Both the position numbers and the translations under genes were made by a program. A model generated the notes under the pieces. The model was not told the DNA's origin and did not search any database. It saw only the letters and a program-made list of their open reading frames with translations. Of a stretch of DNA of 45,563 nucleotides, positions 16,793-40,129 are shown piece after piece. Each line of letters opens with the position of its first letter. The stretch's first letter is position 1. Origin of the DNA: Phytoactinopolyspora halophila (lineage in GTDB: Bacteria > Actinomycetota > Actinomycetes > Jiangellales > Jiangellaceae); NCBI RefSeq assembly GCF_003287285.1, contig NZ_QMIG01000031.1, forward strand, positions 1-45,563, in the 5' to 3' direction.

Positions 16793-16827
16793 ACTGCAAT
16801 GGAGTCCGGCCGTAGAGGCCGGAAGAG
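16793..16827 (-). repeat. Degenerate terminal CRISPR repeat
   Basis: This 35-bp unit matches the consensus over its central hairpin but differs at its plus-strand 5' end (ACTGCAATGG for GCCGCAATGG) and has lost one A (GGAAGAG). On the minus strand the changes fall at the 3' end, where terminal repeats typically decay because no downstream spacer depends on them. Confidence 0.85.
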
Positions 16828-19800: not shown

Positions 19801-19923
19801 GACTCGATCGAGGGCGCCGCAATGGAGTCCGGCCGTAGAGGCCGGAAAGAGAGCCAGATCTCGCAATCTCCCAGGGTCGGCGTGATCGCCGCAATGGAGT
19901 CCGGCCGTAGAGGCCGGAAAGAG

Positions 19924-19958
19924 TCATCAACCTGACCCCGCACGAGGTCCGCGTCATC
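19924..19958 (+). other. CRISPR spacer encoding an NLTPH-family peptide
   Basis: Read on the plus strand, this 35-bp spacer translates as INLTPHEVRVI. The gene at 31593-32081 starts with RNLTPHPITFV, so the spacer very likely came from the 5' end of a homologue on a phage or plasmid. Bases 19929-19943 match the host gene (32040-32054, minus strand) at 13 of 15 positions. A crRNA made from the minus strand would be complementary to mRNA of such a gene. Confidence 0.7.
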
Positions 19959-24691: not shown

Positions 24692-26094
24692 CTCGGGTCC
24701 GTCGTTGGTGAGAACAGGCCCATTCCGAAATGGCTGTTGTGACCCAGGGCGAGTGGGCCGCGCACGGGTCGGCCGGTTCTCAGGGTCAGGTAGGCGGAGC
24801 GGCGGCGATCGTCTCGTGTCGCCGGCCGACCCTTGCGAAACGACGGCCCACCGTGGCGCACGGTCAAGTTGACGTCGAGATCCAAGTAGGACCGATAATC
24901 GAGCTCGCGGGTGACCTCGTGGTGGACAAACTCCGACCATTCATGCCGCTTCTTCGCATACCGTGACGGCACGAACGGCGTCGTCGTGGTCCACACCGTG
25001 GACGGCCCGACGAGCTCTGGCGCGATGTCGTCCACCATGCCCAGCCCGGCGATCCGGATGGTCAGGCGCCACTTGTCCATAAACGGTGACTGGAGATGTG
25101 TGACATCGGTCAACGCTTCCAGCTCGTCGTCACCGAGCCCGGCCGGTACCCACACCAGGAGATCGGTGATCCTGCCGCCCGGTTCTGTGATAGGCAAGTA
25201 GTGGGCATGCCGATGACCGTCGTCCGTGCGGGAGCCATCGGCGCGGCGACCGGCGAGCATTGTGTCTCGACGCTCTTCTCGCCGGCGGCCGAGCTTCGCC
25301 AGCGCTGACGTGCGCAATAGATCGGTGTAGATCAGGGTGTCTCGAACCGATGGGTAAGAACGTTGAGCGACGGCAAACCGCACGGCCGTCACCGGGATGT
25401 GCTTGATCCGCCGGTGGCGACGTCGGGGGGCCGGCGTCTGTGTCCGCTGATAACCCATCAATTTGGTACCGGCCGGGTACAGCAGATTGTGCCGCCGTAT
25501 GTCAACAGGACGGGCAGTGAGTGAATCTATCCGAAGGGGCAGGTCGGGTGTGAGCACCCGCGCGACATTCGCGTTGTCCGGGATGAACTCCGCCGCGTCC
25601 ACGGGTTCCCACACGTCGTGGTCGGTCGCTGCCCAGTCGTGCGCGAGTCGAACTTCGCAAATGCTGTCAGCACGTCCGAGGTAGGGCACGGCAATGGCGA
25701 TCTTGGCGAGCACGTCGTGCTCGTCCTGCGTCAACGCGACGCCCCGCCACTGCAGGGCAAGCTCAGCGTTCCGGTCGAGCACCGCGAACGTGTCGAGTGT
25801 CGCGTCAGTGCTGGTGACGCACCGGGTATGGGTGCTGTCCGGATAGTAGTGTCGCGTGTGGGAGAACGTGTGCGGTGGCACATACGCTGTGGGCGGCGTA
25901 GCAAGCTTCGTCAGCAGCCCGTGCACTGTATCGGCGTCGAGCTCGGGAACCCGCGTTCGCCAGACCGCATATAGGGCGCGAAGCAGCCGCCACGGCGACG
26001 GTGGCAGTTCGACGGCGCCTTCGTTGACGTGCCTCGCCCACGGCGTGGCGTGATAGCGGCCCCACGGAAAGCGGAAAGCCAGAGTGACCGTCAT
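24688..26094 (-). CDS. csb2: Type I-G protein Csb2 (Cas5-Cas6 fusion, GSU0054 family)
   Basis: This 468-residue protein has the N-terminal Csb2 signature AFRFPWGRYHATPWARHVN and ELPPSPWRLLRAL (about 29-41), an internal HRHAHYLP histidine stretch, and a Cas6-like glycine-rich loop LGHNSHFGMGLF near the end (450-461). In type I-G this polypeptide supplies both the Cas5 function (crRNA 5' handle binding) and Cas6 (pre-crRNA cleavage). It starts at ATG 26094, coupled to csb1 by ATGA. No other cas6 is visible in the window, so this protein may mature crRNAs for both the I-G and III-D complexes (inference). Confidence 0.9.
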   Translation of the reverse strand: MTVTLAFRFPWGRYHATPWARHVNEGAVELPPSPWRLLRALYAVWRTRVPELDADTVHGLLTKLATPPTAYVPPHTFSHTRHYYPDSTHTRCVTSTDATLDTFAVLDRNAELALQWRGVALTQDEHDVLAKIAIAVPYLGRADSICEVRLAHDWAATDHDVWEPVDAAEFIPDNANVARVLTPDLPLRIDSLTARPVDIRRHNLLYPAGTKLMGYQRTQTPAPRRRHRRIKHIPVTAVRFAVAQRSYPSVRDTLIYTDLLRTSALAKLGRRREERRDTMLAGRRADGSRTDDGHRHAHYLPITEPGGRITDLLVWVPAGLGDDELEALTDVTHLQSPFMDKWRLTIRIAGLGMVDDIAPELVGPSTVWTTTTPFVPSRYAKKRHEWSEFVHHEVTRELDYRSYLDLDVNLTVRHGGPSFRKGRPATRDDRRRSAYLTLRTGRPVRGPLALGHNSHFGMGLFSPTTDPR

Positions 26095-27056
26095 TTTTTC
26101 TTCCCCTTGTCGGCCCACTCCACGGTCAGTGGATTGCCCGGGCCGAAGATGTCGGAGCACTGGGGAACGAGCTCCTTGATTCGTGCGTTCAGTTCGGAGA
26201 GCGACGGCAGCGGGCGTTCACCTGCACGGACCTTCACCTCGCCGACCACAGCAAGGTCACAGGCGGTGCGCAGTCTCAAACTGCCGTCGAGCAATGACCG
26301 AATCTCCCACAGGGCGATGCTTTCGAGCAGTTGTTGAACCGGATCCGGAAGGCCGTACGAGCGCAGCAGCTCCGTATCGACGACGAAATACGCCCGGATG
26401 TGCCGAGCGGTCCACTCGGTACGCGGATAGGGCACCGATCCGTACCCTTCGGCCGTGCCGCCCAGCTCGTCGGATAGCTGATGGCGCACCCGGTCGGCCT
26501 TGCGACCGCCACTGTCGGCTCGCCGTACGTCGTGTGCCTCGATCACGGCGGAGACTGCCCGCTCGAACTTCGGCTGTCCCCACCATTCCTTCTGCGAGAA
26601 GAACACGCCGTGGACCAGACACAACGGATCGAGTGCGGCGACGGCCCGAGCCATTGACCGCCGATCCAGTGGGGTGTCCTTCTCGAGCCCGAGCCGCTTC
26701 TTGATGACGTCGAACATGTGCTCACCATCGAGCGTCGACGCATGCACGAACGGCGAAGCCAAGCGGTGTGCCTCCAGCCGACTGGAGGTGAGGAACTCGC
26801 CGGTGCCGGCGCGGATCACGCGTACCCACGGCAGACCGTCCAATTCGGACGCGGGCCGATCCGAGGCGTCGTCCCAGGCGGTTGCTTCCAAGCGGTTGGC
26901 CATCGACTGCACCGATTCCACGAGTAGGGAGTCGACCTCCTCGCCGTTCTCGAATCTGGTGAACGTGGCCGCGCCGATGTCCGGGAAACCGGTGGGCTGG
27001 AATGTGCTGCCGATGATGGGTTCGAGGTCTGCCTGGTAAGAGAGACGATCAGGCAT
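26091..27056 (-). CDS. csb1: Type I-G Cas7 backbone protein Csb1 (GSU0053 family)
   Basis: This 321-residue protein belongs to the RAMP-fold Cas7 backbone group. Family-like features are SLLVESVQSMANRLEATAW near residue 45, RLASPFVHASTLDG, DPLCLVHGVFFS (the conserved D-P-x-x-L-x-H-G-x-F), and RHIRAYFVVD. It starts at ATG 27056, overlapping the csx17 stop by 8 bp. It lies between csx17 and csb2, as in characterised I-G loci. In the complex, multiple copies would coat the crRNA spacer. The lysine-rich end (KGKKK) is minor. Confidence is high from motifs plus context. Confidence 0.9.
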   Translation of the reverse strand: MPDRLSYQADLEPIIGSTFQPTGFPDIGAATFTRFENGEEVDSLLVESVQSMANRLEATAWDDASDRPASELDGLPWVRVIRAGTGEFLTSSRLEAHRLASPFVHASTLDGEHMFDVIKKRLGLEKDTPLDRRSMARAVAALDPLCLVHGVFFSQKEWWGQPKFERAVSAVIEAHDVRRADSGGRKADRVRHQLSDELGGTAEGYGSVPYPRTEWTARHIRAYFVVDTELLRSYGLPDPVQQLLESIALWEIRSLLDGSLRLRTACDLAVVGEVKVRAGERPLPSLSELNARIKELVPQCSDIFGPGNPLTVEWADKGKKK

Positions 27057-29226
27057 GGATGGGTTCCTTTCGTTCGCTTGGGATCGTGGAGATACGCGCC
27101 AGGCTGGCGAGACGGTCGCGATCGCTGACTGCAAGCATCAGGCATGCGGCTAGCCGGTCGGACTCGATGTTCGTCGGTGCGGGGGTCACGACGCCGGGTA
27201 CTCCGCTGATGCGCAGGCGCCGGGCAGCGTCTCGGAGTACGTCCGTGCTGCGTCCCGCTCGGAGTTGAGCGGGCCAGGCACGTCCCGGCCGCAGTAGCGT
27301 CGGAGAGGTCGTGCCGTCCTCGTTCGGCACGTCCAAGTGCTGATCGGAGGAGAACGGCAGCATGAAGTCGAGCCCGCCGGTCGAGGTGGTGCGTCGCCGT
27401 GCAGGCGGGGACAGCTGCGCCGTTGACCAGTCCACCGTGAGGAATCCGGCGAGAAGCTCGGCCGTGCGAACCTCATCGAGGTGGCCGGTGGCCAGACGGA
27501 ACACATCCTCGGCGAGTGCACGCATGCCGTAGGTGTGCACGATCCTGGCGCCGCGAACGGCGGGGGCTACCTCAGATTCCGTTGTGTCGTCGTTCGGGCG
27601 TGGCATGCTGCGATACCGTGCGGCCACGCCGAGAGCCGGGATGAGTCCGGCCGCCAGTGACGCCGGCGCGGGACGTTCGGACCAGGCGGGCCGGCCATGG
27701 TCGTCAACGACGGGCGACACATACGGCCGAATCCCGCCAAGCGTCGGCGGCTGCTTCGGATCGTGCGCCGTGGCCAAAGCGAGTGCCACGCGCAGCTGAG
27801 CATCATCATCGACCGCAGGTTGCAGGGCATAGGCGATCGCCCGGCCATCCCTCAAGATCAGCGGCCGGGTCCGGCCTCGAGCGTGTCCGGAGCGGGCCAC
27901 GGCCTCGTGGCACCGGCCGAGTGCGACGAAAACATCGACCAGGTCGTTCAGACTGCCCGACGACGCGTGTGTGAACAGTGCGTCCTCCAGCCGATGGATC
28001 TCGGCGGCCACCCCGCGTGATGAACGGGAGCGGTCGACGTCGCGAAGCCACCGGTCAAGACCCGCCAGAAGCTCGACCCCTGGTCGACGCTGCACAGCGA
28101 CCCGGCCGGCAGGCACGGCGAATGGATTCTGCCCGAACCTGTCGGCGAAGATGAACCTCTCGAAGGTATCGATGCCGCGGTCGACGCCCAGATTGGCGAC
28201 TGCCCTGGCGAAGTCGAGTCCGGACCGCGCGGGTTTGCCGCGCCAGTCGGCGCGGCCCTCACTCAGCAAGTGTTCAACAGCTGCGAGGTCGAGTGGGTCG
28301 CTCCACAGCGGCGCCCAGAACTCGCCATGCACGGTCTCACCGTCGGTGGCGGTGGCGAACGCGCTCGTAGTGCCTCGAACTTGAAACGGCAATGCGGCGT
28401 CGTCGTACTCGGCGCCATGCCGCCGGACCACGGCCGAGGCCAGCAGAAGGACGCCTTCGAGGGTCAAGATGAATGCCCAGGGATTGGCGAACCCTGCTTC
28501 ATCTTTTTTCTCGAAAGGTGACGAGTGGATACCCCCGGCCCGGCCCGGATCGAACTGGCCGACGGGATCCCGGAGGTACGGGATGGTCTCCGAGCCGGTC
28601 AGAAGCGAACGCAACCACTCCTGGCTGGATTCGTGGGTGAGGACAGTCTGCACTCGGGCCAGGTAGGTACTGGACAGCTCTTGTCGGCCGAATACCCCGC
28701 CTGTCCCGAGAAGTCGACTAAAGGCGATCTTGGCGTCCTGGGTTAGCGTCGTGGCGACATCAAGCCAGGGCAATGCTTCGTCCGGAAACTCGTTCCGGCA
28801 CATCTGGATGACCTTCGGCTTGTACTTCTTGTCCCAGAAGTCCGAACCGCTACCGCCCCATCCGCGCTCGCGTGCACGGTCCACCACACTCTCAGCGGCG
28901 GCGATGGTGCGACGGAGCGCGCCTAGCCGGGGGTCGTCCGAGGTACGCACCCAGTCGAGAAGCGCTGCTTTTGTTCCGGTCGAACTGGCGAATCCCGCCT
29001 CCTTGTTCCACGGCGAGATAACCGGAGCCGGTTCGAAAGCTCGCTCGAATTCGGCAACGAGCTTGTCCACGTCGTCGAACCGGGAGTGGAGGATGAATTG
29101 GCCACCGCGCCAGGCTCCCCGAGCGTCGCTATCGAACAGGCGTGACACCGCACGAAGGGTTCCCAGCGACCACAGGTAGCTGCCCAGCGGAGTCCCACGG
29201 TATCCCGCCAGTGGTAGTTCAGGCAT
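27049..29226 (-). CDS. csx17: Type I-G large subunit Csx17 (Cas8g)
   Basis: This 725-residue protein begins MPELPLAGYRGTPLGSYL and continues SLGTLRAVSRLFD, the characteristic Csx17 opening (PLAGCxPTPLxxYLKALGVLR-like). It is the large effector subunit that recognises the PAM and recruits Cas3. ATG 29226 was chosen for that conserved start. An ATG two codons upstream (29232) is nearer an AGAGGA site and is an equal candidate. It overlaps the cas3 stop by 8 bp and the csb1 start by 8 bp, so the operon is translationally coupled. Confidence 0.9.
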   Translation of the reverse strand: MPELPLAGYRGTPLGSYLWSLGTLRAVSRLFDSDARGAWRGGQFILHSRFDDVDKLVAEFERAFEPAPVISPWNKEAGFASSTGTKAALLDWVRTSDDPRLGALRRTIAAAESVVDRARERGWGGSGSDFWDKKYKPKVIQMCRNEFPDEALPWLDVATTLTQDAKIAFSRLLGTGGVFGRQELSSTYLARVQTVLTHESSQEWLRSLLTGSETIPYLRDPVGQFDPGRAGGIHSSPFEKKDEAGFANPWAFILTLEGVLLLASAVVRRHGAEYDDAALPFQVRGTTSAFATATDGETVHGEFWAPLWSDPLDLAAVEHLLSEGRADWRGKPARSGLDFARAVANLGVDRGIDTFERFIFADRFGQNPFAVPAGRVAVQRRPGVELLAGLDRWLRDVDRSRSSRGVAAEIHRLEDALFTHASSGSLNDLVDVFVALGRCHEAVARSGHARGRTRPLILRDGRAIAYALQPAVDDDAQLRVALALATAHDPKQPPTLGGIRPYVSPVVDDHGRPAWSERPAPASLAAGLIPALGVAARYRSMPRPNDDTTESEVAPAVRGARIVHTYGMRALAEDVFRLATGHLDEVRTAELLAGFLTVDWSTAQLSPPARRRTTSTGGLDFMLPFSSDQHLDVPNEDGTTSPTLLRPGRAWPAQLRAGRSTDVLRDAARRLRISGVPGVVTPAPTNIESDRLAACLMLAVSDRDRLASLARISTIPSERKEPIHA

Positions 29227-31585
29227 CAGCATTTGTCCTCTCGACAGCGCTGGCTCGCCAATCCGCTGAGCGAAGAACCGCTTCACAGAAGGCGAGTCGG
29301 AACGGGCCCAGATCGGTGCGGTCGCGCAACTTCAAGGCGCGGTCGGTCAGCGAACCCGGGCCGAGCTGGGTCGGTGTGAGATCCATCAACATCGGCGGGA
29401 GCTCGCGGCCGCCGGGCAGCGTAGCCGGCACCGTCGACGAACCCTGCCGGACACCGAGAACAACGTCCTCGGTTTCGTCCGGCTGACGACGGATTCCAAG
29501 GCGGACTTTGCCATGGTGTGCCATGGCCAGATAGACGACCAGATCGCGTTCTGTGACGCCGTCCAGCAGTCCTGGCTCGTCGCTGAGCAGCATCAACGCG
29601 GTCGCCAGTTCATGCCGGAAATGCGGCGGCTTGTGACGCAGCGGCCGGTGGCTCGGCGACTTCGCCCACACGGTCGTGTCATCCGGTGGCGGAGACTCTT
29701 CGTTGGCAGACCTTAGCGAGGAGACAAACGTGTCATGGCATTTTCCGAGATCGTGATAGCGAGCGGCGAGCGCCACGGCGTCGCACTGATCGGCCGATAG
29801 CGCCGGAGCTAACTGCTCCAGCAAGGCACGCGTTTCGCGCTCCGTATCGGACAGGTGTACGTCGAGCGGGACCCACCCGACGCCGGCGGACTGCGGATCA
29901 GTGTCCATCCCGTCGGGAAGTGGATCGGCATCGGGGATCGCCACCGGCGCTACCGCAGCCTTGCTTGTTGGGGAGAAGCCGATCTCCGGGGAGTAACCGC
30001 CACGCGTCGCGTCGAACAGAAGCAGAGCGGTCGGGCGAAGATCGTCCGCACGGGCCGTACGCCACATGCTTTCCCGCTGGTCATAGACGAGAGCCGATGA
30101 GTTAGGGAGAAGTTTGCGGGCTTGGTCGATAGGAGCCGTGCACAACTCGGCGCGTGACGGCATCGGCAGCCGCTCTCGCGTGTCAAGATCGGTGACCGAC
30201 GACAGATCGCGCCAGGCAATTGACACCGTCCGCTCGGTGGCGTCGCGAATGAACGGGCTGACATCGATGTCGTTGCCCGACAGGTCGGGTGCTGTGTCGA
30301 AGAGTCCAAGCAGGTCACGCCGCCGGAGTACGGGATGAACGGGAACGTCTTGCGGCACGTCCAGACTGGCGAGTTCGCTGCCGGTGACATGCCTACCTTC
30401 AAGCTGCCCCAGCTGATCGGCGGTCGCTTTCAGGTCGGCCTCCTCATACGGCAGGTGCCAGTGACGGCCCGCAGGGGGAGACGTCCACAACAGCCGCGCC
30501 TGTTCGGCGTGGCCGTCGCGATTGCACCGTCCCGCCCGCTGAACGATCGACGTCCACGGTGCCACCTCGGTGATCAGAGTCTCCGAGGTGAGATCGACGC
30601 CGGCTTCCAGGACCTGGGTACTCACCACGATCGACCCGGCGCCGGACGGTGTGTGGAGCGCCCGGTCCGTATGTGCGAGCCGGTCGCCGAGCCGGAACCG
30701 CGAATGCAGGAGGGTCAGCGAAGCCTCCGGCTGTCGCTTCTTCAACGCGAGGTACACATCCGTGGCCCGCTCCACGGTGTTCAATACGACGAGGGTGCGG
30801 GTGCCGGAGACATGCTCGGTCAGGACGTGTTCGGCCACAGCCGCGGGGTAGTGCTTGGCATCGGTGTCCACGAGGGGTAGCTCGTGGAAGGTGCGTGTCG
30901 CCTCGAGCCGTGTGCGAAGGTCGCCTTGGATGTCGTCGTCGGACAACTCGACGACGTTGAGCGGTCGTGTCATGTCTGGGGTGACCAGGTCATCGGGATC
31001 GATTGTGGCCGACATCCACAGGGAACGACACGGCAGTGCGGTACCGAGGTGTTCGCGTAGTCCCTGCAGCTGAAGGGAGGTGGGCAGCCCCGGCCCCATC
31101 AGTTGCACCTCGTCGAAGACGAATTGCACGCCCGCGTTCAGAAATCCGAAACTCATCGGCCACGCGGTGCGGGCTTCGGCGAAGCCACGCATGAGCAGGC
31201 GGGACAGGACCATGTCCTGCGTTCCCACGAAGATGCGTTCCCGTTCGGGGTCGGTCTTCCACGCTCGATCGTCGGGATCCTCCCCACCCATCAGCACGTG
31301 CACGTCGACGTCCGATCCCAGACGGTCCCGCCACCCCCGGACTACTGCCACGACCTGCTCGACCAATGCCCGCTGCGGTAGGACATAGACCAGCCAGCGC
31401 GGTGTCTCAGCCGGCTGGGACCGGCGTAGATGAAGCCACGGGAGAACCGCCGCCAAAGTCTTTCCGGCACCCGTTGGAACGCGTAGTACCTCAGGCAGGC
31501 CATTCAGGGCGAGCCGAGACTGGTACGGATACGGCTGTTGGCCGCCGGTCGCCCGGGCAACGAGCTCATGAAACTGATCAGGCAC
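29219..31585 (-). CDS. cas3: Cas3-type helicase with C-terminal HD nuclease, type I-G
   Basis: The 788-residue protein has the helicase first: VPTGAGKT (Walker A, 36-43), FDEVQLMG (DExx box, about 158-161), LNTVERA, QVLEAGVDL and QRAGRCNRDG (motif VI). The HD nuclease follows at the C-terminus: ARYHDLGKCHDTF (HD at about 610), FRHELATALML and AMAHHGKVR. In most type I systems HD comes first; the reversed order is typical of I-G. GTG 31585 was chosen because AGGTGAG lies 6 bases upstream, its TGA being the stop of the preceding gene; an ATG at 31636 would overlap that gene by 44 bp. It degrades DNA after recruitment to the R-loop. Confidence 0.93.
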   Translation of the reverse strand: MPDQFHELVARATGGQQPYPYQSRLALNGLPEVLRVPTGAGKTLAAVLPWLHLRRSQPAETPRWLVYVLPQRALVEQVVAVVRGWRDRLGSDVDVHVLMGGEDPDDRAWKTDPERERIFVGTQDMVLSRLLMRGFAEARTAWPMSFGFLNAGVQFVFDEVQLMGPGLPTSLQLQGLREHLGTALPCRSLWMSATIDPDDLVTPDMTRPLNVVELSDDDIQGDLRTRLEATRTFHELPLVDTDAKHYPAAVAEHVLTEHVSGTRTLVVLNTVERATDVYLALKKRQPEASLTLLHSRFRLGDRLAHTDRALHTPSGAGSIVVSTQVLEAGVDLTSETLITEVAPWTSIVQRAGRCNRDGHAEQARLLWTSPPAGRHWHLPYEEADLKATADQLGQLEGRHVTGSELASLDVPQDVPVHPVLRRRDLLGLFDTAPDLSGNDIDVSPFIRDATERTVSIAWRDLSSVTDLDTRERLPMPSRAELCTAPIDQARKLLPNSSALVYDQRESMWRTARADDLRPTALLLFDATRGGYSPEIGFSPTSKAAVAPVAIPDADPLPDGMDTDPQSAGVGWVPLDVHLSDTERETRALLEQLAPALSADQCDAVALAARYHDLGKCHDTFVSSLRSANEESPPPDDTTVWAKSPSHRPLRHKPPHFRHELATALMLLSDEPGLLDGVTERDLVVYLAMAHHGKVRLGIRRQPDETEDVVLGVRQGSSTVPATLPGGRELPPMLMDLTPTQLGPGSLTDRALKLRDRTDLGPFRLAFCEAVLRSADWRASAVERTNADA

Positions 31586-31592
31586 CTGATTC

Positions 31593-32081
31593 TCACCTGC
31601 CTGTCGTCGGGCCGATGCTGCCGAACGCCGTTCCATCCCCGGCGTCGGCGGATGTGGGCGTCATCGTGTCAGCCACCCCGGACACAACGTCGTCGCCCAG
31701 ATGAAGGGAATAAAACTCTCCCGGAACGTGGGCGTATCGTGCAAGAGCACGGCAGCCGATCACGCGTCCCGTGGAATCGCGGACGTGACCGTACGGGAAG
31801 ACGAGGTCGTTCCTATCGATGGCTGTGCGGGCCACCAGCTCGGACACGACGAGCAACTGCGACGGCCCAGGTGGGGGTAGGTCCACCACGTGTGTGCGCG
31901 GAGGCAGGACGTAGACCGGTACCGGAACACCGGCGACATCCGTACGCCGTGCCGGTCGCCCCGGTACCGCCCGTGCGGCCGTCGTGTCAATGGGTAACTG
32001 CCCCTTGATCTCGCCGCCCCGATCTACGAAGGTAATCGGATGCGGCGTCAGGTTTCGTAGCTCGTGTCCATCCACGCCCAT
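31593..32081 (-). CDS. NLTPH-motif protein of unknown function, first gene of the I-G operon
   Basis: This 162-residue protein opens with RNLTPHPITFVD (NLTPH 10-14) and contains GVPVPVYVLPP, LLVVSELVA and VRDSTGRVIGCRALARY. This layout (NLTPH, a valine/proline strand, VVS-LVA, RD-x-GRVIGCR) matches, from memory, a widespread uncharacterised family common in phages, plasmids and bacterial genomes. Its stop overlaps the cas3 ribosome-binding site, 7 bp before the cas3 start, so it is co-transcribed and probably coupled. It starts at ATG 32081 with a weak ribosome-binding site. A spacer in the array encodes the same motif. Possible roles (regulator, ligand-binding accessory, captured phage inhibitor) are speculative. 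Confidence 0.8.
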   Translation of the reverse strand: MGVDGHELRNLTPHPITFVDRGGEIKGQLPIDTTAARAVPGRPARRTDVAGVPVPVYVLPPRTHVVDLPPPGPSQLLVVSELVARTAIDRNDLVFPYGHVRDSTGRVIGCRALARYAHVPGEFYSLHLGDDVVSGVADTMTPTSADAGDGTAFGSIGPTTGR

Positions 32082-32185: not shown

Positions 32186-34315
32186 GTGCTGATCGCGACC
32201 GTTGGGGGCAACGCGGTTCCTGTCTGGCTTGCGTTGAAGGAACGTCGGCCGGACCGGTGTGTGCTCGTACACACGGCTGAATCCGAGCGGGTGGCCGAGC
32301 GAATCCGGAAACAGACCGAGGGGATCGACGTCACGTGCTGTCGGGTAGGGGAGCTACCCACGTTTGACGAGTTCGACCACGCGCTCAGTGAGTACGTGGG
32401 CGCGAGCGAACCTGTCGACGGCGTCGACATCACCGGCGGAACGAAGCTCATGGCCGTCCTCGCCGCCGAATGGGCAGAACGGCGAGGCGTCAGCATGCAT
32501 GACTTCAGCTACGTTGCCGGCCCGCGCCTACTCCGGGACTTCGCCCGGGGAAGCACCGTGATCAAGACGGACCTCAGCACGGACGACTTCTTGAACCTCC
32601 AGCGTGACAACGAAGTCTCCTCGGTGGGGGTGCCGCCGGAGGTGCGCCCTGGTGGCGGTGCCCACGCTGAGGCGAGAGCGTTCTTTCAGCGAAAGCTCAA
32701 CGACACATCGCTGCCTCCGCCGTCATCGTTGCGACTCCCCTCGGCGGGCGGGACAGACTGGAACGAGCTGTTCTCCGAGAAAAGAGGTCACTACCGGTGG
32801 ATGGAACTGGCCACTCAACTGGCGGCTGAGCTGGATCCTAAGCTGAGCCACGTCCGTGGCAACGTCACGGTGAAGTCGCCGGAGGGAAAGAGCGATCTCG
32901 AGGTCGACGTCGTTGCCGTGCGTGACAACCAGTTGATCCTGTTCTCTGTCACCACGAATCCGCTCTTGAGCGGTGGCTCTAAGAGCTTCCTGTCCGCGAA
33001 GGCCACGGAAAAGCTCACCGAAGCGGCCGTTCGTGCACGCCACCTCGGAGGTGAGTTCGCCCGCGCCGTACTGGTGACACCAGACGAGGCGCGTAGCGTC
33101 AAATGTGCGCGCGAACTGCTGTCGCAGCTACTCCCGGGCGATGACCCGGTTGTTCTGTTGGGCGCCACGGAGATCGCATCGGCACTCGACGGTCAGACCT
33201 CGCTGTCGACCAGCATGGACCGCTTAAAGGTCACCGGAGGGCGTCCGTCGGCGACGACGCGTATACGCCCGGCGGGGCCCGCGGAGCGTGATCTCGTGCT
33301 CGCGGTGGGGGAGAATCCCATCCCGGTCGCCGAAGCTATTCGCACGCGCAAGGCGCGCGAGGTCACACTCGTCTACTCCGCTGCCACGGAATCCCACGCG
33401 GTACAGGTCGGGGACCTGGTGAGCCGTGGAAATGTGGCCGTCGACGGGATCAGACTGGCTGATCCTCATGATCCTGAACAGGTCCACCGAGACCTCCACG
33501 ACTCCGGGGTGGTTCCCGCGGCGGTCGATCTGACCGGGGGGACAAAACCGATGGTCGTGCAACTGAGCCGGTGGGCCCGAAGCCACGGCGACGGCATAAC
33601 CCGAACCTACATACCAGCTCGGCACGGAATGCAGCGCGATGTGGACTCCAGGGATGAGAGAAAGCTGAACACCCCAGGCGTTTCTGAGGTGATTACTGCC
33701 AGCCGGGTGCTGACCAGACCGCCAGGATCTAGTGAGGCGTTTGGTGATGACATCGCTGTGCTGACGAATGTTGCTCGTATATGGGAACCGAGCCAGACCA
33801 ATGCGCCGAGCGCGCCGGGGCCGTCGCCTGCGAACATGCGTCCCCGCCGGACGTGCGAGTGGGTGACGGCGGGTGCGGACGTGAGCCAACTCTGGCGCCT
33901 CTTCCTTGAACCGGACGGCGATCCCAAGGCACGCAGCCGAGATTTCCGCCTGCTCGTCCTGGAGGCTCAGGGCTGGCATTTACTCGTCGGCGATGTGGTG
34001 CAGCACGCGCTGAAGCGGAAGCGCACGGCAATAGACAAGCCAGATCAAGCTGCTCGAGACGTCATCCGAGAGACGCTCTTCGCGCTGGACGTGGTCGCCG
34101 CCGCGGCATTGGGCAGCGCTGCCGTTCCCGTGGTCATCGCGCCCGAAGACGTGATCGGGGATTCTCCCCACTATGAGTGCCGCCGCGAACTCGTGCGCAA
34201 GCTGCGTGATGACTGGGATTCTCCCCGCTCGCTGCACGTGGTATCGCCGACCGAGATCGAGAACGCGGCGTCTCGCGATGAACTGAAGGCGATCCTCCTG
34301 GAGGAGGCCCTGTGA
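32186..34315 (+). CDS. Can1-like tandem CARF protein with degenerate nuclease domains
   Basis: The 709-residue protein is two repeats of one unit. Each has a CARF-type Rossmann domain with the cyclic-oligoadenylate-binding motif: DITGGTK (81-87) and DLTGGTK (448-454), preceded by matching strands CVLVHTAESE and VTLVYSAATE. Each is followed by a region that resembles a PD-(D/E)XK nuclease. In the first, EVDVVAV keeps the Asp, but the strand that normally reads E-C-K is LILFSVTT; in the second it reads WHLLVGDV. The architecture matches Can1 (CARF-nuclease-like-CARF-nuclease), a type III ancillary effector. It starts at GTG 32186 and its stop overlaps the cas10 start. Nuclease activity is doubtful; cOA sensing is likely. 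Confidence 0.82.
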   Translation: MLIATVGGNAVPVWLALKERRPDRCVLVHTAESERVAERIRKQTEGIDVTCCRVGELPTFDEFDHALSEYVGASEPVDGVDITGGTKLMAVLAAEWAERRGVSMHDFSYVAGPRLLRDFARGSTVIKTDLSTDDFLNLQRDNEVSSVGVPPEVRPGGGAHAEARAFFQRKLNDTSLPPPSSLRLPSAGGTDWNELFSEKRGHYRWMELATQLAAELDPKLSHVRGNVTVKSPEGKSDLEVDVVAVRDNQLILFSVTTNPLLSGGSKSFLSAKATEKLTEAAVRARHLGGEFARAVLVTPDEARSVKCARELLSQLLPGDDPVVLLGATEIASALDGQTSLSTSMDRLKVTGGRPSATTRIRPAGPAERDLVLAVGENPIPVAEAIRTRKAREVTLVYSAATESHAVQVGDLVSRGNVAVDGIRLADPHDPEQVHRDLHDSGVVPAAVDLTGGTKPMVVQLSRWARSHGDGITRTYIPARHGMQRDVDSRDERKLNTPGVSEVITASRVLTRPPGSSEAFGDDIAVLTNVARIWEPSQTNAPSAPGPSPANMRPRRTCEWVTAGADVSQLWRLFLEPDGDPKARSRDFRLLVLEAQGWHLLVGDVVQHALKRKRTAIDKPDQAARDVIRETLFALDVVAAAALGSAAVPVVIAPEDVIGDSPHYECRRELVRKLRDDWDSPRSLHVVSPTEIENAASRDELKAILLEEAL

Positions 34316-35805
34316 CCGTGTATTCCGTGGTCGACCTGACCGGCATTCAAGATTTCGTCTACGGATCCAACCGGCTCAAGGATGTCGTCGCGGCATCGAC
34401 ACTCGTCGCTACCGTCTTGGACGATGACGATCGCATACATCGTGCAGATGCCATGGTTCAGGCGCTTGGCCGCTCAGGTGGCGCCTATATCTCGTCTGCC
34501 GGCGGAAACGGGATCGTCAGCCACGACACGCTTGCCGACGCCCAGCTATGGGCGAGCCATCTCAGTCGCGCCCTGTATGAGCAGGCGCCGGGCCTGGGGG
34601 CGGTGATTGGTCACAGTGACGACACCGATGATTTCGTGTCGGCGCTCAGCCAGGCCTTCGACCGCGCCGACGCGCACAAACGCCACGGCATCGGACACTC
34701 GCCGCTACCGCGATATCCAGGAGTCGCTATCTGCGGCCAGACCGGCGAGGCTGCGGTAGCTCGACAGGGAAAGAACGCGCAGGACGTGTCGTTCTTGCAC
34801 GGCAGCAGCAACGAGAACGATGAACCGATCGGGCGGACCATCCAACGCCTGGATGATCACAACCTCCGGCCGGGGGCCAGCCACGAGACCGCGGTATCCG
34901 GACTCCAGGGAGAAGAACCGGAGATCATCGATGACCTGGGCCGAACCATCGGTGAACAGAGCGACATCGCGATCGTGCACATCGACGGCAACGGGATCGG
35001 CGCGCGAATCAGAAAGTGGCTGGATGAGCCGCCCGACCGTGACCACGTGGTGGACGACTACCAGTTCGCTGCGCTGCAACTGGCCGAGCTCAGTCAGACG
35101 ATGCGGGATGCGGTAATCAATTGCGTAGGCTCGGCGGTCGGCCCACTGGAAGATCATGGTGATGTCATCGGCCTGCGAGCGACCCCCGAGGCCGCAGATT
35201 TTCCGTTACGCCCTGACCGCCGTGAGCGCCCTGACACGGTCTTTCTGCCGGTGCGCATCCTTCTGTGCGCCGGAGATGATCTGACGTTTGTGTGCGATGC
35301 GCGTGTTGCCCACGCGTTGACGCTGGCCGCGCTCCGAGCCGCCGAACAACACCAGGAGGATTCCGGTAACCGGCCATTTGGTGATGATGAGCCGGTGCGG
35401 GTCGCTGCCGGCATTTCGATCCACCGGGCTCACCATCCAATCCGGCTACTCACCGATGACGCGGAGCATCGAACCCGCCGGGCCAAGGAAACGGGTGTGA
35501 TGGTCTCGTGGTCGCTCTGGGGCGACGGGGGCGAAGGTGAAAACGGCGAGCGGCTCTTCGGTCAGTGTCAGCTCGCATCCATTCTCGATGAGGTCGTCCG
35601 CATACAGCGAATGGGCCGGCGGGGACCATGGCGCCGATACCGAGAACAGAGACGTGACGATGTCGAGGCGTATCTAGCCCACGTCAACCGGATCTCTCGG
35701 GATCCGGAGGAGCATATTGGCTCAGAAGATCGCAACATTGGCATCCCTGCCAATGAGATCGCCGATCTCGCTGTCATGCCGGCGTGTGCGAGGGGTGACG
35801 TGTGA
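34312..35805 (+). CDS. cas10: Cas10-like protein with Palm cyclase domain, no HD domain
   Basis: This 497-residue protein opens TGIQDFVYGSNRLKDVVAAS, the typical Cas10 IQxFI-x-SxxLxxxxGAS region. The Palm shows VHIDGNGIGARI (about 222-233) and LLCAGDDLTFVCD with A320-G321-D322-D323, a GGDD variant that keeps both aspartates. These are the features of the cyclic oligoadenylate synthase. No N-terminal HD motif is present, and the protein is short (Cas10 is often 700 or more), as in III-D-type Cas10. Target RNA binding would trigger cOA production, read by the Can1-like neighbour. It starts at GTG 34312, overlapping the preceding stop (GTGA). Confidence 0.9.
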   Translation: MTVYSVVDLTGIQDFVYGSNRLKDVVAASTLVATVLDDDDRIHRADAMVQALGRSGGAYISSAGGNGIVSHDTLADAQLWASHLSRALYEQAPGLGAVIGHSDDTDDFVSALSQAFDRADAHKRHGIGHSPLPRYPGVAICGQTGEAAVARQGKNAQDVSFLHGSSNENDEPIGRTIQRLDDHNLRPGASHETAVSGLQGEEPEIIDDLGRTIGEQSDIAIVHIDGNGIGARIRKWLDEPPDRDHVVDDYQFAALQLAELSQTMRDAVINCVGSAVGPLEDHGDVIGLRATPEAADFPLRPDRRERPDTVFLPVRILLCAGDDLTFVCDARVAHALTLAALRAAEQHQEDSGNRPFGDDEPVRVAAGISIHRAHHPIRLLTDDAEHRTRRAKETGVMVSWSLWGDGGEGENGERLFGQCQLASILDEVVRIQRMGRRGPWRRYREQRRDDVEAYLAHVNRISRDPEEHIGSEDRNIGIPANEIADLAVMPACARGDV

Positions 35806-36443
35806 TGGCGCTTCCTTCGACATTGGTGATCCGTACGGTGACGGAGACCTTGCCCGGCGCGGTTCGCGCCGAGCCGGACGTGGACCTCAGCTGTGAGCTG
35901 GATGAGGATAACTTGCCGGTCTTGAACGGCTCGCGTGTACGGGCCCGGCTACGGGACGCGGTCCTAACCAGGCTGAACTTTTTCGACGAGGAAGATCAGC
36001 GGCGAGCGCACGAGATCTTCCCACCCGAGCATTCGTGGGGTGAACCCGTCGTTACCGGGTTCACCGCGCGCTTGCGGGAGCCGGAACGTAGCACCCTACT
36101 CGCCGCGATGCGTCGCGAGCCGCAGCCTCAAAGGCTTGGTGTTGACCAGCTGCTGCAGATGTTGACCGTCGTCCGGTATCGCACGGCGAACGACCAAACC
36201 GGCGCACCGCAGCATGGAACCCTGCGTTCAGAACGCCGCTTACGGCCAGGCGTTGAGTTTCACGCGCGGCTGCGGTGGAACACGTCGTCGACCGAGGAAC
36301 ACGCCGCTGTCCTGGCGTCGGCGGCGCTGGGCATGCGTCAGATCGGACGGGGTGGGAGCGGGCAGGTGACTGCTTACCTCGACGACCGGGAACAGACCGT
36401 TGCCCGGGCTCGTACGATCTGGGAGAGGAGCCACACCGCGTGA
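35805..36443 (+). CDS. Small RAMP (Cas7-like) subunit of the type III-D complex
   Basis: This 212-residue protein has RAMP-fold features: an N-terminal strand (TLVIRTVTETLPG), LNGSRVRARLRDAVLTRL (the G-S-x-hRGxLR position), and a C-terminal glycine-rich loop GMRQIGRGGSGQVTAYL. It most resembles single-domain Cas7/Csm3-type subunits. ATG 35805 was chosen (TGATG overlap with cas10); GTG at 35802 is possible. GAGGGG lies 9 bases upstream. It lies between cas10 and csx10, as expected for a backbone subunit. The catalytic Asp of Csm3-type RNase subunits cannot be assigned with confidence. Confidence 0.75.
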   Translation: MALPSTLVIRTVTETLPGAVRAEPDVDLSCELDEDNLPVLNGSRVRARLRDAVLTRLNFFDEEDQRRAHEIFPPEHSWGEPVVTGFTARLREPERSTLLAAMRREPQPQRLGVDQLLQMLTVVRYRTANDQTGAPQHGTLRSERRLRPGVEFHARLRWNTSSTEEHAAVLASAALGMRQIGRGGSGQVTAYLDDREQTVARARTIWERSHTA

Positions 36444-38092
36444 CGACGCTGTACTACCCGTTCACGCTGCGGCTACGGGAGCCTTTGACCCTCACCCGCT
36501 TCGACGGTGTCACACCGGCCATTGCCACGACTCATGTGATCGACGGTCAGGCGCTCAGGGGAGCAACGAGCGCCGCCATCATGCGGGCCGTTCCGGAACA
36601 GCACAGGCAGCACCTCATCCAGGAGTTGATTCTCTCGCGGCGCGTGTCCTATCTACCCGCGTATCCCGCCTATCTGGGTGATGAGCGGGCACTGCCCGCG
36701 CCGCGAAACTGGCGCTGCCCCAAGAAACCGGACACGGCCCAGGGCGGCTCCGAGGAGTGTGTCTACGACCAGGCATCGCCCGAGGACATGGCCGGTCCCC
36801 CTCCGGAGCTCACGGTTAAACCGCTGACGGGGCCCATTGGCCGATCGGCTGGCCGGATCTATCCGGTCACGGTGGCCACGACGACGACGCACCGGAACCT
36901 CACCGACCGCCGCTCCGGCGGTGCGGGTCGTGTCGTCAAAAACGAACGCGGTACGTCGATCCCGACCGGCTCGGTGTGGAGTCAGGAAGCCATCAAAGCG
37001 GGAGAGACCTTCAGCGGTCTGATCGCCTTCACCGGCGACGAACACAGCATTGCAGAGCTGGCTGAGATGCTGCGCAGAACCTGGAACGACGGCGGACTGC
37101 GCCTTGGCCGAGCCGGCAATTCCGGGTTCGGTGGCTGGCCGGAGGTGTCTTGGGGTGATCCCCGGCCTCGGGAGATAGACGACGACCCCATGCCGATGTC
37201 CGACGGCGAGCGCCGGATGCTGACACTGACCTCGCCTGCGGTGGTCCGGCATCCGAGGTCCGGTTCCCCCGGTCCGGAGAACCTGGCCGCGGCGGTCGAA
37301 ACGTTGACCGACGGTGCGCTACATGTCGACGACAGCTACGTGGACGGTCTGACTCTCAGCGGGATGAACCGTCACTGGGCCGCCACAACCCCGACGGTGC
37401 GCGCGGCCACCGCCGGCTCCACTGTGATCGTCAAAGCCACGCGCGACATCGGCGTCGACGAGCTCCTGGCGTGGGAACAGGCTGGTCTAGGTGAACGGCG
37501 CCGAGACGGCTGCGGGCGTTTTGTCTTCCTCGAGCCGTTGGAGGGCCCGGTACCGATCGACACTGTGCCGGATTGGGCCACGGAGTTCTCGGCACCATCG
37601 ACGGCCCCTGCCGACGACAGCTTCGTGTGGCGCGGTCAACGCAGTGCGCTTGACACCGTGATCCGGCAGCAGGCCGTACGAGCAGCACGTAAGGTGGCCG
37701 AACACGTCGATGGGTCGTTGCCGTCGCCGAGCGTTCTAGGCCGGGCCCGCAGCCAATACGCCGCAGGTGAGATCGCCAGATCCTCCGGCGACGAGGACGA
37801 GCTTGCGAAATGCGTCCTGCCTGGTAACGAGTGGTGTGTCCGACAACTCGTGATGCGTCCGAGTGACTCGGTCTCCCTCGATGAGCTGCAGGGATCCGGA
37901 CTGACGCGGGACATCTTCCCCGCCGGATGGGACCAGGGATGGGTTGACGCCGAGCGGGTCCAGCGGGCGGCCGAGGAAGCCGCGCCCGAGTGGTGGCGCG
38001 TTTTCGTCGCGGCTCTGTTGAAGAAGCTGCATTTCCGTGCGCAACGGCAATCCGATGGTGAGGCCGAGGGGAGTTCTGATCGTGACAGCTGA
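36440..38092 (+). CDS. csx10: Csx10-like RAMP protein (type III-D)
   Basis: This 550-residue protein starts YYPFTLRLREPLTLTRFDGV, followed by THVIDGQALRGATSAAIMRAV (RAMP-type G-x-x-hRG segment), TVATTTTHRNLTDRR, and the glycine loop GGLRLGRAGNSGFGGWPEV near residue 220-235. This order is that of Csx10, the Cas5-like/RAMP subunit diagnostic of III-D. It starts at GTG 36440, overlapping the previous stop (GTGA); the open frame runs back to 36275 inside the neighbour and is not used. It ends 11 bp inside the next gene. Confidence 0.87.
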   Translation: MTTLYYPFTLRLREPLTLTRFDGVTPAIATTHVIDGQALRGATSAAIMRAVPEQHRQHLIQELILSRRVSYLPAYPAYLGDERALPAPRNWRCPKKPDTAQGGSEECVYDQASPEDMAGPPPELTVKPLTGPIGRSAGRIYPVTVATTTTHRNLTDRRSGGAGRVVKNERGTSIPTGSVWSQEAIKAGETFSGLIAFTGDEHSIAELAEMLRRTWNDGGLRLGRAGNSGFGGWPEVSWGDPRPREIDDDPMPMSDGERRMLTLTSPAVVRHPRSGSPGPENLAAAVETLTDGALHVDDSYVDGLTLSGMNRHWAATTPTVRAATAGSTVIVKATRDIGVDELLAWEQAGLGERRRDGCGRFVFLEPLEGPVPIDTVPDWATEFSAPSTAPADDSFVWRGQRSALDTVIRQQAVRAARKVAEHVDGSLPSPSVLGRARSQYAAGEIARSSGDEDELAKCVLPGNEWCVRQLVMRPSDSVSLDELQGSGLTRDIFPAGWDQGWVDAERVQRAAEEAAPEWWRVFVAALLKKLHFRAQRQSDGEAEGSSDRDS

Positions 38093-39518
38093 ACGACGGC
38101 TGGCCGGACAGGGCGGTACACGGCGCGTTCACTCCGTCTGGCGAATGTGTGCCGACGCTACCGTCGTCACCCCCTTGCACTCCGGTTCCGGGCAGATTGA
38201 TCACTTGCCGAGTGAGGAACGCCCGGACATGACGTTGACCCTGGATGCGGACGGATCCCCGTGCATCCTTGGCTCCACGCTGCGCGGCCTGCTTCGCCAC
38301 CATCTGGCCGCCCGGTTGTGCGGGTATCGTTCGGACGACTCCACGGCCGAACGCGAGACCAGTCGACTGTTCGGCAGCGCTCGGGACGATGGTCACCACG
38401 GCCGGATCGAGGTGCGGGACGCGACCGTCAAGGCGGACTCCATACAGGTGGCGATCCGAAACCGGCTCGATCCCGGCCACGGCGTTGTGGATGCGAATGC
38501 CCTGTTCGACATGGAGCTGATACCAGCAGGGAGCACATTTCCCATCGAGGTCACGATCACGGTCGAGGATGGCGCCGACGAGTTGGAACTGCTGTCGCAG
38601 GCGTGCGCCGCACTAGCCGGGTTTGACGACGTCAACGGTATCCGCGTCGGCATGGCGACGAACCGTGGTTACGGCAAGATCCGTACGTCAGGATGGCGGG
38701 CGTATAGGTGGGCATTCGCTGACGGCGAGTGGTTTGACCACGACAGCCGGGACCCGGAGGCGGAGTTTCTCGATGAGGAACTCACGCCCTACGCCACGGC
38801 GCACGATGCGGTGGATGCGGCACTGAAACTGGCTGGGATGCGTGGCGCTATGGACGTTCCCGACCATCGCGTGTTCGCCGCGCTCCGCGTACCTATCCGG
38901 GTGCCTGGTGGGTGGAATGAGCTGGACTGGATCGAGCGCCAGTCGGGGCCGGTTCCGGAGCGCGACCCAGTCACCCGCACCGGGACATCGATCGCCGGGG
39001 CCGTGCGTGCGGAGATTCGCCGAGCGTTACGTGCGATTCTTCCGAGTGACGACGCCGATTCGCGGTTCGCCGACATCTTCGGTGGTGACGCCGGCAGCGA
39101 TCGTCCCCCGGAACCGTCGCGGTGCCGAGTGGAGATGGCGAAGGTCGTCAGCGATGGCCTCGAACGTCGTCCACGGGTAGCGCTGAACCCGCACAGCCGA
39201 GAGGTCCGTCACCTGTTCCACGACGTCGTGCTCGCTGACGGCAAGGCCGAATTGACGTTCGTCGTGGAAGGTGGCAAGGGCGGCGATGTCTCGGCCGAGG
39301 ATTTGGCTGTGCTTGCCCTGATCATCAAAGCCCTTTATGCCGGGCGGGTGGCATTCGGCGGCCATAGTTCGGTCGGATACGGCAGGGCTGAACTCGACGG
39401 AACGGCGTCGCTCCGACTTCCCGATGGTGAGACTCTCAGTTTGACGCCGGATGATGAGGAGCCACGCGTCGACGGTTGGCTCGAGGCCCTCGTGAGTAGG
39501 CAGCAGGAGGTGGCATGA
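38082..39518 (+). CDS. Double-RAMP (Cas7-Cas7) protein, type III-D backbone
   Basis: This 478-residue protein has two RAMP domains in tandem. The first (about 1-200) has TVVTPLHSGSGQID, ILGSTLRGLLRHHLAARL, LFGSARDDGHHGRIEVRDA and a G-rich loop GMATNRGYGKI. The second (about 260-470) has TRTGTSIAGAVRAEIRRAL, IFGGDAGSD, VALNPHSREVR and GRVAFGGHSSVGYGRAEL. This Cas7-Cas7 arrangement is a recurring feature of III-D/III-E evolution. GTG 38082 was chosen because GAGGGGAG precedes it by 8 bases; ATG 38055 would overlap Csx10 more. It is coupled to the next gene by ATGA. Confidence 0.82.
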   Translation: MTAERRLAGQGGTRRVHSVWRMCADATVVTPLHSGSGQIDHLPSEERPDMTLTLDADGSPCILGSTLRGLLRHHLAARLCGYRSDDSTAERETSRLFGSARDDGHHGRIEVRDATVKADSIQVAIRNRLDPGHGVVDANALFDMELIPAGSTFPIEVTITVEDGADELELLSQACAALAGFDDVNGIRVGMATNRGYGKIRTSGWRAYRWAFADGEWFDHDSRDPEAEFLDEELTPYATAHDAVDAALKLAGMRGAMDVPDHRVFAALRVPIRVPGGWNELDWIERQSGPVPERDPVTRTGTSIAGAVRAEIRRALRAILPSDDADSRFADIFGGDAGSDRPPEPSRCRVEMAKVVSDGLERRPRVALNPHSREVRHLFHDVVLADGKAELTFVVEGGKGGDVSAEDLAVLALIIKALYAGRVAFGGHSSVGYGRAELDGTASLRLPDGETLSLTPDDEEPRVDGWLEALVSRQQEVA

Positions 39519-40129
39519 CTGTCGCGCAAGCGATGCCCGCCGGTGTCGACCTGACCGAACGCGACCACGCTGCGGCTGCCGCGCTCCTGGCATGGGTTCT
39601 GGAGGATGGCCCTGCGCCGGAGTGGTCCGGTGACCCTCACTGGGCGATGATCGTTGGTGATGATGGCGTTCTGTGGGCCCGGCGGGATATCGATGACATG
39701 TCGTGGCAGCGGCCGACGTTCGGCGTCCGGCGCGACCATGTGCCACGTATCACCGAAGAGACTGTCTGGGAGGCACGCGTCTGGGGACCGGACATCGAAC
39801 ATCACGTCTGGGGTGACGGCCAGCTGGCCGGGCGGACTGCAGTCCCGAAGGCCTGCGACGATGACCTGCTGAAGCCCACCGAGGATGTGCACGTCCTGCT
39901 AGACGGCACCCCTCAGACCGATGCCTCCGCGCCATTCGCACGGTGTGTTCAACCGGGCGGGCTGACAGCGGTGCTGCCGGTCGTCGACGGTTACACGGGA
40001 CGGAATACCGCCATCACCATGCGTACGCATTATGCCCGCGACGAGGAGTCAGGCATGGTTGTCGCCGCATTGCATGTCTTTACCGATCTAGTCGCCGTGC
40101 CGGAGCGAAAGGGGACGACCCCGGTATGA
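39515..40129 (+). CDS. csx19: Csx19-like type III-D protein
   Basis: This 204-residue protein has a central part reading AMIVGDDGVLWARRD, then VWEARVWGPDIEHHVW, and the C-terminal part MRTHYARDEESGMVVAALH. These segments correspond to the conserved features of Csx19 (TIGR03984): a D-x-V-x-W-G/A-R strand, an E-x-R-x-x-G motif and a closing Y-x-x-D-x-x-G element. The function in the complex is not established. Position between the double RAMP and the last RAMP gene, with ATGA coupling on both sides, supports membership. The similarity is from memory and moderate. Confidence 0.7.
   Translation: MTVAQAMPAGVDLTERDHAAAAALLAWVLEDGPAPEWSGDPHWAMIVGDDGVLWARRDIDDMSWQRPTFGVRRDHVPRITEETVWEARVWGPDIEHHVWGDGQLAGRTAVPKACDDDLLKPTEDVHVLLDGTPQTDASAPFARCVQPGGLTAVLPVVDGYTGRNTAITMRTHYARDEESGMVVAALHVFTDLVAVPERKGTTPV

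What the first reader, a model, noticed from the sequence alone, without database searches (positions are those of the whole stretch)
31593..32081. NLTPH protein leads the I-G operon while a spacer in the array encodes the same motif
The first gene of the cas3 operon opens RNLTPHPITFV and is coupled to cas3. The spacer at 19924-19958 encodes INLTPHEVRVI. A chance five-residue match among about 80 spacers in six frames is unlikely (on the order of one in a thousand under uniform residue use). So the locus both carries and targets this uncharacterised, phage-associated family. Ideas: a captured phage counter-defence protein now used as regulator or fail-safe, or a ligand-binding accessory to cOA signalling.
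Basis: partly seen in the sequence, partly recalled or inferred. Interest (0 to 1): 0.82.

Follow-up and report, generated by a model that had tools for sequence, protein, structure and literature searches.

The report
Ring nuclease beside type I-G CRISPR
The unknown gene is very likely an off-switch enzyme for a bacterial immune alarm; the same bacterium's CRISPR memory holds a piece of a rival copy of that gene, and it targets a resident virus that carries yet another copy.

Summary
The NLTPH protein (window 31593-32081, minus strand) is not uncharacterised: it belongs to the Crn4 ring nucleases (published December 2025), which destroy the cyclic oligoadenylate alarm of type III CRISPR. Evidence: sequence (PDB 9r7b, E 1.8e-12), predicted fold (Foldseek E 8e-10; Z 13.6) and both catalytic residues (H14, R101). 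It heads the type I-G operon, but its partner is most likely the divergent type III-D operon next door: of 19 relatives found in other genomes of the class, 15 lie by type III genes and none by I-G genes. Spacer 44 encodes INLTPHEVRVI, the 5' end of another crn4 gene, and does not match the host's own copies. All five off-array spacer matches found in the genome fall in it. This self-targeting pattern is often read as a sign of anti-CRISPRs and makes the open question "do phage Crn4s act as anti-CRISPRs?" testable. Crn4 alone cannot block I-G DNA cleavage, so a further inhibitor or a silent I-G system is implied.

The parts
31593..32081 (-). crn4: 162-aa Crn4-family ring nuclease, first gene of the I-G operon; H14 and R101 are the catalytic equivalents; residues 119-162 form a tail modelled mostly with low confidence
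   Evidence: PDB Crn4b E 1.8e-12; PADLOC Unk_01 E 2.7e-17; AF2 model against Crn4b Z 13.6 over 112 residues; invariant residues
29219..31636 (-). cas3g (type I-G Cas3); likely start GTG 31585, 7 nt after the crn4 stop
   Evidence: TIGR02621 745.6 bits; junction sequence
27049..29286 (-). cas8g/csx17
   Evidence: TIGR04113 413.9 bits, model 2-714 of 718
26091..27134 (-). csb1/cas7g
   Evidence: PF09617, TIGR02570
24688..26160 (-). csb2 (Cas5-Cas6 fusion in type I-G)
   Evidence: TIGR02165 130.8 bits, model 2-491 of 492
23048..24940 (-). cas4-cas1 fusion, adaptation
   Evidence: NF049935 758.8 bits, model 2-546 of 546
16793..22582 (-). CRISPR array, 81 repeats and 80 spacers; crRNA most likely read from the minus strand, leader end near 22582
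   Evidence: degenerate end repeat at 16793; 7-bp repeat hairpin, 4 nt, then 8 nt ATTGCGGC (compared with PMC9638904); TTN or near-TTN flanks on the matching side
19924..19958 (+). spacer 44; + strand encodes INLTPHEVRVI, the 5' end of a crn4 gene; the inferred crRNA is antisense to that mRNA
21790..21825 (+). spacer 70, perfect match to resident prophage C13:78805-78840, flank TTT
21862..21897 (+). spacer 71, perfect match to prophage C13:59713-59748, upstream of the terminase gene, flank TAA
21934..21968 (+). spacer 72, perfect match to prophage C13:63158-63124, flank TTC
22221..22259 (+). spacer 76, perfect match to prophage C13:49914-49876, flank CTT
17189..17225 (+). spacer 6, 3 mismatches to the prophage integrase gene C13:85599-85563, flank TTT
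32186..34315 (+). type III CARF effector, two CARF domains (GGTK at residues 84 and 451) with a PD-(D/E)XK-like region, Can1-like
   Evidence: PADLOC Csx1, CARF4-PDDEXK and Can1 profiles; sequence
34312..35805 (+). cas10, small, cyclase-type motif AGDD (LLCAGDDLTF)
   Evidence: PADLOC Cas10 E 9.6e-50
35802..36443 (+). type III Cas7/Csm3-like
36275..38092 (+). Csx10-like Cas5 of III-D
38037..39518 (+). type III-D Cas7
39943..42207 (+). type III-D Cas7 (Csm3-like)

Best explanation
The protein is a host Crn4-family ring nuclease. When the neighbouring type III-D complex (guided by crRNAs from the I-G array) senses phage RNA, Cas10 makes cyclic oligoadenylates that switch on the CARF effector. 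The Crn4 dimer cuts these rings (by analogy H14 as general acid, R101 from the other subunit) and resets the alarm. Placed first in the I-G operon, with 104 bp between it and the divergent III-D effector gene, it would be made together with the DNA-targeting arm. Mobile elements carry their own crn4 copies, plausibly to silence the same alarm. Spacer 44 records one such gene, and the resident prophage, hit perfectly by four recent spacers, carries another. Shown: Crn4 family membership, catalytic residues, gene order, spacer identity, prophage, self-targeting. Inferred: activity, substrate, co-transcription, array sharing by III-D, and an anti-CRISPR role of the prophage copy.
For: Sequence and fold match to solved Crn4 structures. 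Catalytic H and R invariant in all 14 aligned sequences, the window's included; mutation of H15 or R112 abolishes activity in Crn4a (PMC12830947). Of 19 crn4 loci in other genomes of the class sample, 15 have type III genes within 10 kb, all 15 on the same strand as crn4. Cas10 bears AGDD, a variant listed among likely active cyclases (PMC11229360, passage). Spacer identity. Prophage crn4 at C13:54149-54799 between phage replication and structural genes, 15-nt repeat at both ends inside a split GH2 gene, integrase at the right end. All 5 off-array spacer matches listed lie in this 50-kb element, 1% of the genome.
Against: No biochemistry. The adenine-stacking R92 of Crn4a is E81 here and E16 is P15, so activity and substrate choice may differ (both positions also vary in relatives). 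The gene is on the I-G strand, whereas all 15 type III-linked relatives lie on the type III strand. The spacers show no overall coding-strand bias by a weak codon test (42 of 80; of the clearest, not significant; 70% accurate on 36-mers of its own training genes), so there is no firm sign that III-D selects spacers. The nuclease motifs of the CARF effector look degenerate to me, so the output of the alarm is uncertain. A ring nuclease cannot explain survival of I-G DNA targeting.
Confidence: 0.8

Rival explanations
1. Crn4 here has been taken over as a true part of the I-G system (for example to cut a nucleotide ligand that regulates I-G), unrelated to III-D.
For: First gene of the I-G operon, directly before cas3g, opposite strand to III-D.
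Against: No I-G protein match in the flanks (up to 10 kb) of the 19 crn4 loci from other genomes. Of 13 I-G genomes in the class sample only this one has crn4 beside cas3g. Four relatives of the window's cas3g have no crn4 or type III match in the stretch fetched. The III-D effector operon begins 104 bp away.
Confidence: 0.1
2. The gene is a captured phage anti-CRISPR, or passenger, that still damps the host's type III response to an element's benefit and has no host role.
For: Family members occur in phages, plasmids and this genome's prophage.
Against: It sits between two cas operons; a place beside type III genes is common for the family (15 of 19 loci); the prophage copy has a different architecture (N-terminal extension). 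No tree was made.
Confidence: 0.1
3. Spacer 44 is not aimed at an anti-CRISPR: it was taken by chance from a crn4 gene of a mobile type III locus or of another bacterium, without any selection for that gene.
For: The nearest sequences are Nocardiopsis crn4 genes (6-7 mismatches of 35), at least one of them type III-linked (L027); no perfect protospacer was found; 1 crn4 spacer of 80 is no enrichment.
Against: Viral crn4 starts are nearly as close (7 and 8 mismatches in IMG/VR contigs L019 and L091).
Confidence: 0.35
4. The prophage is tolerated because I-G and III-D are silent, or because of an unrelated Acr; its Crn4 plays no part.
For: Crn4 cannot block I-G DNA cleavage; many small unannotated prophage genes could encode an Acr.
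Against: The I-G genes match their models nearly end to end and cas10 has its cyclase motif; the four matching spacers are leader-proximal, so adaptation seems to have worked recently. Expression is unknown.
Confidence: 0.5
5. The NLTPH reading of the spacer is a chance match.
For: Only 35 nt, and no perfect protospacer was found.
Against:: outside crn4 genes the coding pattern was met 0 times in this genome and once in 396 genomes (longer pattern).
Confidence: 0.01

Closest known systems
Crn4b / Crn4a ring nucleases (PDB 9r7b, 9sma, 9qs9; PMC12830947)
   Same: Fold, NLTPH motif, catalytic H and R, link to type III-D, presence in phages and plasmids; a SAVED fusion occurs in both (TIR-SAVED in the paper, SAVED-TM in L025 here).
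   Different: Placed at the head of a type I-G operon on the strand opposite to III-D; 44-residue C-terminal tail; R92 and E16 equivalents not conserved.
PADLOC 'Unk_01' (small protein, sometimes fused to CARF)
   Same: Same family by profile (E 2.7e-17); the Crn4 paper says its ORF was earlier named Unk01. That the two labels are one is my inference.
   Different: A label only, without function.
AcrIII-1 / Crn2 viral ring nuclease
   Same: Works alike: small dimeric ring cutter using a histidine, found in viruses and in CRISPR loci (from PMC12830947).
   Different: The paper describes the Crn4 fold as unrelated to known ring nucleases; not a family match here.
Prophages tolerated despite self-targeting spacers (PMC6990116, passages seen)
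   Same: Chromosomal prophage perfectly matched by spacers; anti-CRISPRs are one accepted explanation.
   Different: Here the prophage carries a ring nuclease of the same family as the one in the host CRISPR locus.

Membership tests
Crn4 ring nuclease | Sequence similarity to solved Crn4 | tested here: met
   phmmer E 1.8e-12 to 9r7b, about 4e-5 to the two Crn4a entries; profile 4.1e-26
Crn4 ring nuclease | Crn4 fold | tested here: met
   AF2 model pLDDT 77.7; Foldseek E 8.0e-10, TM 0.80 by target length; VIA Z 13.6, rmsd 2.6, 112 aligned
Crn4 ring nuclease | Conserved T, H and R (T13, H15, R112 in Crn4a) | tested here: met
   T12, H14, R101, invariant in 14 of 14 aligned sequences
Crn4 ring nuclease | Ligand contacts R92 and E16 of Crn4a (not in the paper's list of residues conserved in all members) | tested here: not met
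   E81 and P15 in this protein; both positions vary among the 14 aligned relatives
Crn4 ring nuclease | Association with type III-D loci | tested here: met
   III-D operon begins 104 bp away; 15 of 19 loci in other genomes lie near type III genes
Crn4 ring nuclease | Homodimer; cleavage of cA3, cA4, cA6 | not testable with these tools
   needs biochemistry
Type I-G CRISPR-Cas | cas3g, cas8g/csx17, csb1, csb2, cas4-cas1 fusion | tested here: met
   csx17, cas3g, csb1, csb2 and cas4g-cas1g models all over curated cut-offs, except csx17 neighbour model NF049934, which is a weak side match
Core component of type I-G | crn4 recurs beside I-G genes | tested here: not met
   1 of 13 I-G genomes, this one; 0 of 19 crn4 loci in other genomes near I-G genes
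Anti-CRISPR (prophage crn4) | Carried by a mobile element that host spacers target | tested here: met
Anti-CRISPR (prophage crn4) | Shown to block immunity | not testable with these tools
   needs an experiment

The most novel reading that the evidence does not exclude
One cell holds a three-way contest over a single signal: a host Crn4 that resets type III-D, a prophage Crn4 that keeps the alarm off so that the lysogen survives four perfect spacers (with an unknown I-G inhibitor among the small genes near it), and a spacer whose crRNA is antisense to crn4 mRNA, so that the I-G array can also guide type III-D against transcripts of its own antagonist.
Probability: 0.22. Interest if true: 0.85.

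Novelty: new member of a known kind. Interest (0 to 1): 0.62.

Why it matters
The Crn4 paper leaves open whether phage Crn4s are anti-CRISPRs. This genome offers a natural test: a lysogen with an intact-looking I-G system and a III-D system, four perfect spacers against its own prophage, and a crn4 in that prophage. The prophage's small-gene cluster is also a place to look for an inhibitor of type I-G. I recall none in print; my one search for that settles nothing, because its short term matches other words (in the one paper I opened, a company name).

Tried and rejected
BLAST of spacer 44 against phages (140 records, 40 listed, best E about 1, mostly mycobacteriophage minor tail genes) and plasmids (41 records, 30 listed, best E 0.007, an unrelated ORF reading LINLKPHEGR) gave no protospacer. 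The whole array gave none in phages and two weak plasmid matches. Two exact sub-patterns of the spacer (20 and 19 nt) in IMG/VR gave one match each: a viral crn4 with 8 mismatches overall and an unrelated place with 11. NLTPH[E/D]VRV in IMG/VR: 0. The search for related loci with the window protein: 7 pattern matches, no relative. Pfam and NCBIfam gave no family for the window protein, and Pfam none of note for its 13 aligned relatives. A coding-strand bias of the spacers was not seen overall. In the own genome spacer 44 has only weak partial matches outside the array, the best E 0.01. The CARF protein had no PDB sequence match. No Pfam match for 10 small prophage genes near crn4. The string NLTPH in papers: 6 hits, none about this family by title and abstract. 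Searches on spacers against anti-CRISPR genes: 9 papers listed and one that holds the phrase 'spacer targeting acr'; none was opened. Crn4 with prophage, self-targeting and related words: 17 papers, the 10 listed have 0 mentions of Crn4. These are narrow searches of open-licence papers only. The repeat was searched only by its own sequence in the genome; arrays with other repeats were not sought. In one search the tool scored 40 of 117 first-look candidates, 12 per genome and 2 per genome, so weaker matches may be missed. The TAA flagged for the second crn4 is the end of that gene, not a break.

Full report
What is there. The ORF at 31593-32081 (minus strand) encodes 162 residues, MGVDGHELRNLTPHPITFV.... 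It is followed by a type I-G operon: cas3g, csx17, csb1, csb2 and a cas4-cas1 fusion, each over its curated cut-off, then an array of 80 spacers. In the other direction, 104 bp away, starts a type III-D operon: a double-CARF effector, a small Cas10 with an AGDD motif, Cas7 proteins and a Csx10-like Cas5; one ORF in it, 39515-40129, has no family match.

What the protein is. Alone it matches Crn4b in the PDB (9r7b, E 1.8e-12) and, more weakly, Crn4a; a profile of 14 relatives matches all three Crn4 sequences (E 4e-26 to 4e-17). An AlphaFold2 model (pLDDT 77.7) has 7 Foldseek matches below E 0.001, all Crn4, with Z 13.6 over 112 residues. The paper (PMC12830947: abstract, first of seven parts of the text, the structure, in vivo and discussion sections, and passages) reports that Crn4a cuts cA3, cA4 and cA6, that H15 and R112 of Crn4a are essential, and that it relieves type III immunity with two of three effectors tested. 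The equivalents H14 and R101 are present here and invariant in all 14 aligned sequences. Two ligand contacts, R92 and E16, are E81 and P15 here, which leaves substrate choice open. The C-terminal tail (119-162) is mostly modelled with low confidence and is longer than in the eight viral relatives.

Which system it serves. In 393 genomes of the class, 20 carry crn4 (21 places, two of them in this genome) and 13 carry I-G cas3g; three carry both, and only in this one are they adjacent. Of the 19 crn4 loci in other genomes, 15 have type III genes within 10 kb by tblastn of the window's proteins, all 15 on the same strand as crn4, and none has I-G genes. All 15 are from one family of the sample, so they are not independent. 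Some flanks were cut by contig ends. The other four loci, and the second copy in this genome, show no type III match nearby. Four relatives of the window's cas3g have neither crn4 nor type III matches in the 15-20 kb stretches fetched. So the gene belongs with III-D by association, and its seat in the I-G operon is the unusual part.

The spacer. Spacer 44 (19924-19958) encodes INLTPHEVRVI. The chance tests are in the observation check. It does not match the host's own crn4 (15 of 35 differ) or the prophage copy (13 differ). The nearest genes found are Nocardiopsis crn4 starts (6-7 mismatches; a 23-nt exact run in one) and viral crn4 starts (7 in L019, 8 in L091). No true protospacer was found. 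The source is therefore a crn4 gene, but whether it was in a phage, a plasmid or a mobile type III locus is not settled.

Array orientation. Three signs agree that crRNAs are made from the minus strand: the degenerate repeat at the cas-distal end; a repeat hairpin followed by 4 nt and 8 nt, the layout described for I-G processing (PMC9638904, passages); and TTN or near-TTN flanks on the 5' side of matched protospacers, TTN being the I-G PAM according to the same paper. Spacer 44's crRNA is then antisense to crn4 mRNA and could in principle guide III-D as well as I-G. [quoted passage not shown] the passages I saw do not mention I-G. A weak codon test found no overall coding-strand bias (42 of 80; of the clearest, p 0.125).

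The prophage. The genome's second crn4 (C13:54149-54799, about 100 residues before the Crn4 domain) lies between phage exonuclease and helicase genes on one side and terminase, peptidase and major head genes on the other. The element is bounded by a 15-nt direct repeat at C13:35965 and C13:86099 inside a GH2 glycosidase gene that it splits, with a tyrosine integrase at the right end: about 50 kb, integrated. Blasting the 80 spacers against 89 loci in hand gave four perfect matches to it, spacers 70, 71, 72 and 76, all near the inferred leader. A genome-wide search gave five off-array matches at E 1e-5 or better; all five are in this element (the fifth is spacer 6, 92%, in the integrase gene). 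Two of the four perfect matches have a strict TTN flank; the other two have TAA and CTT and fit TTN if shifted by one base (the shift is my inference).

Mechanism and limits. Best reading: host Crn4 resets the III-D alarm; mobile elements use Crn4 against it; the array records that contest. Shown: family, residues, gene order, spacer identity, prophage and self-targeting. Inferred: enzyme activity, use of the array by III-D, and an anti-CRISPR role of the prophage Crn4. Crn4 cannot stop I-G from cutting DNA, so the lysogen needs another inhibitor or a silent I-G system; tolerance may have nothing to do with Crn4. The CARF effector's nuclease motifs look degenerate to me, so what the alarm does is uncertain.

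Verdict. As a protein it is a new member of a known, recent family; the genomic setting is what makes it interesting.

Noticed in passing
L028, L100-L103 (genome contig C13:35965-86113): A 50-kb prophage integrated in a GH2 glycosidase gene with a 15-nt direct repeat at both ends, carrying a crn4, and matched perfectly by four spacers of the window's array.
   Followed up: yes
L025:8565-10196: A 543-aa ORF joins a SAVED-TM-like region (PADLOC, run on the same gene in L002) to a C-terminal Crn4 domain; no CRISPR gene was detected around it with the window's proteins; possibly a membrane effector with its own off-switch.
   Followed up: partly
window 32186-34315: The double-CARF effector has two GGTK motifs but, by eye, no clear E-x-K nuclease motif, so its nuclease domains may be inactive or changed.
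   Followed up: partly
window 31583-31636: The cas3g start is probably GTG 31585 rather than ATG 31636; the longer ORF overlaps crn4 by 44 nt.
   Followed up: partly
L028:5530-13520: A cluster of small genes around the prophage crn4; 10 of them were tested and have no Pfam match; one matches a PHROG of unknown function; candidates for an inhibitor of type I-G.
   Followed up: partly
L079:9259-10242: A 327-aa ORF in genome G146 has a Crn4 domain at its C-terminus after about 210 unexplained residues; its true start is not known.
   Followed up: no
window 21862-21897: Spacer 71 and its prophage target contain, by eye, a terminator-like inverted repeat just upstream of the terminase gene.
   Followed up: no
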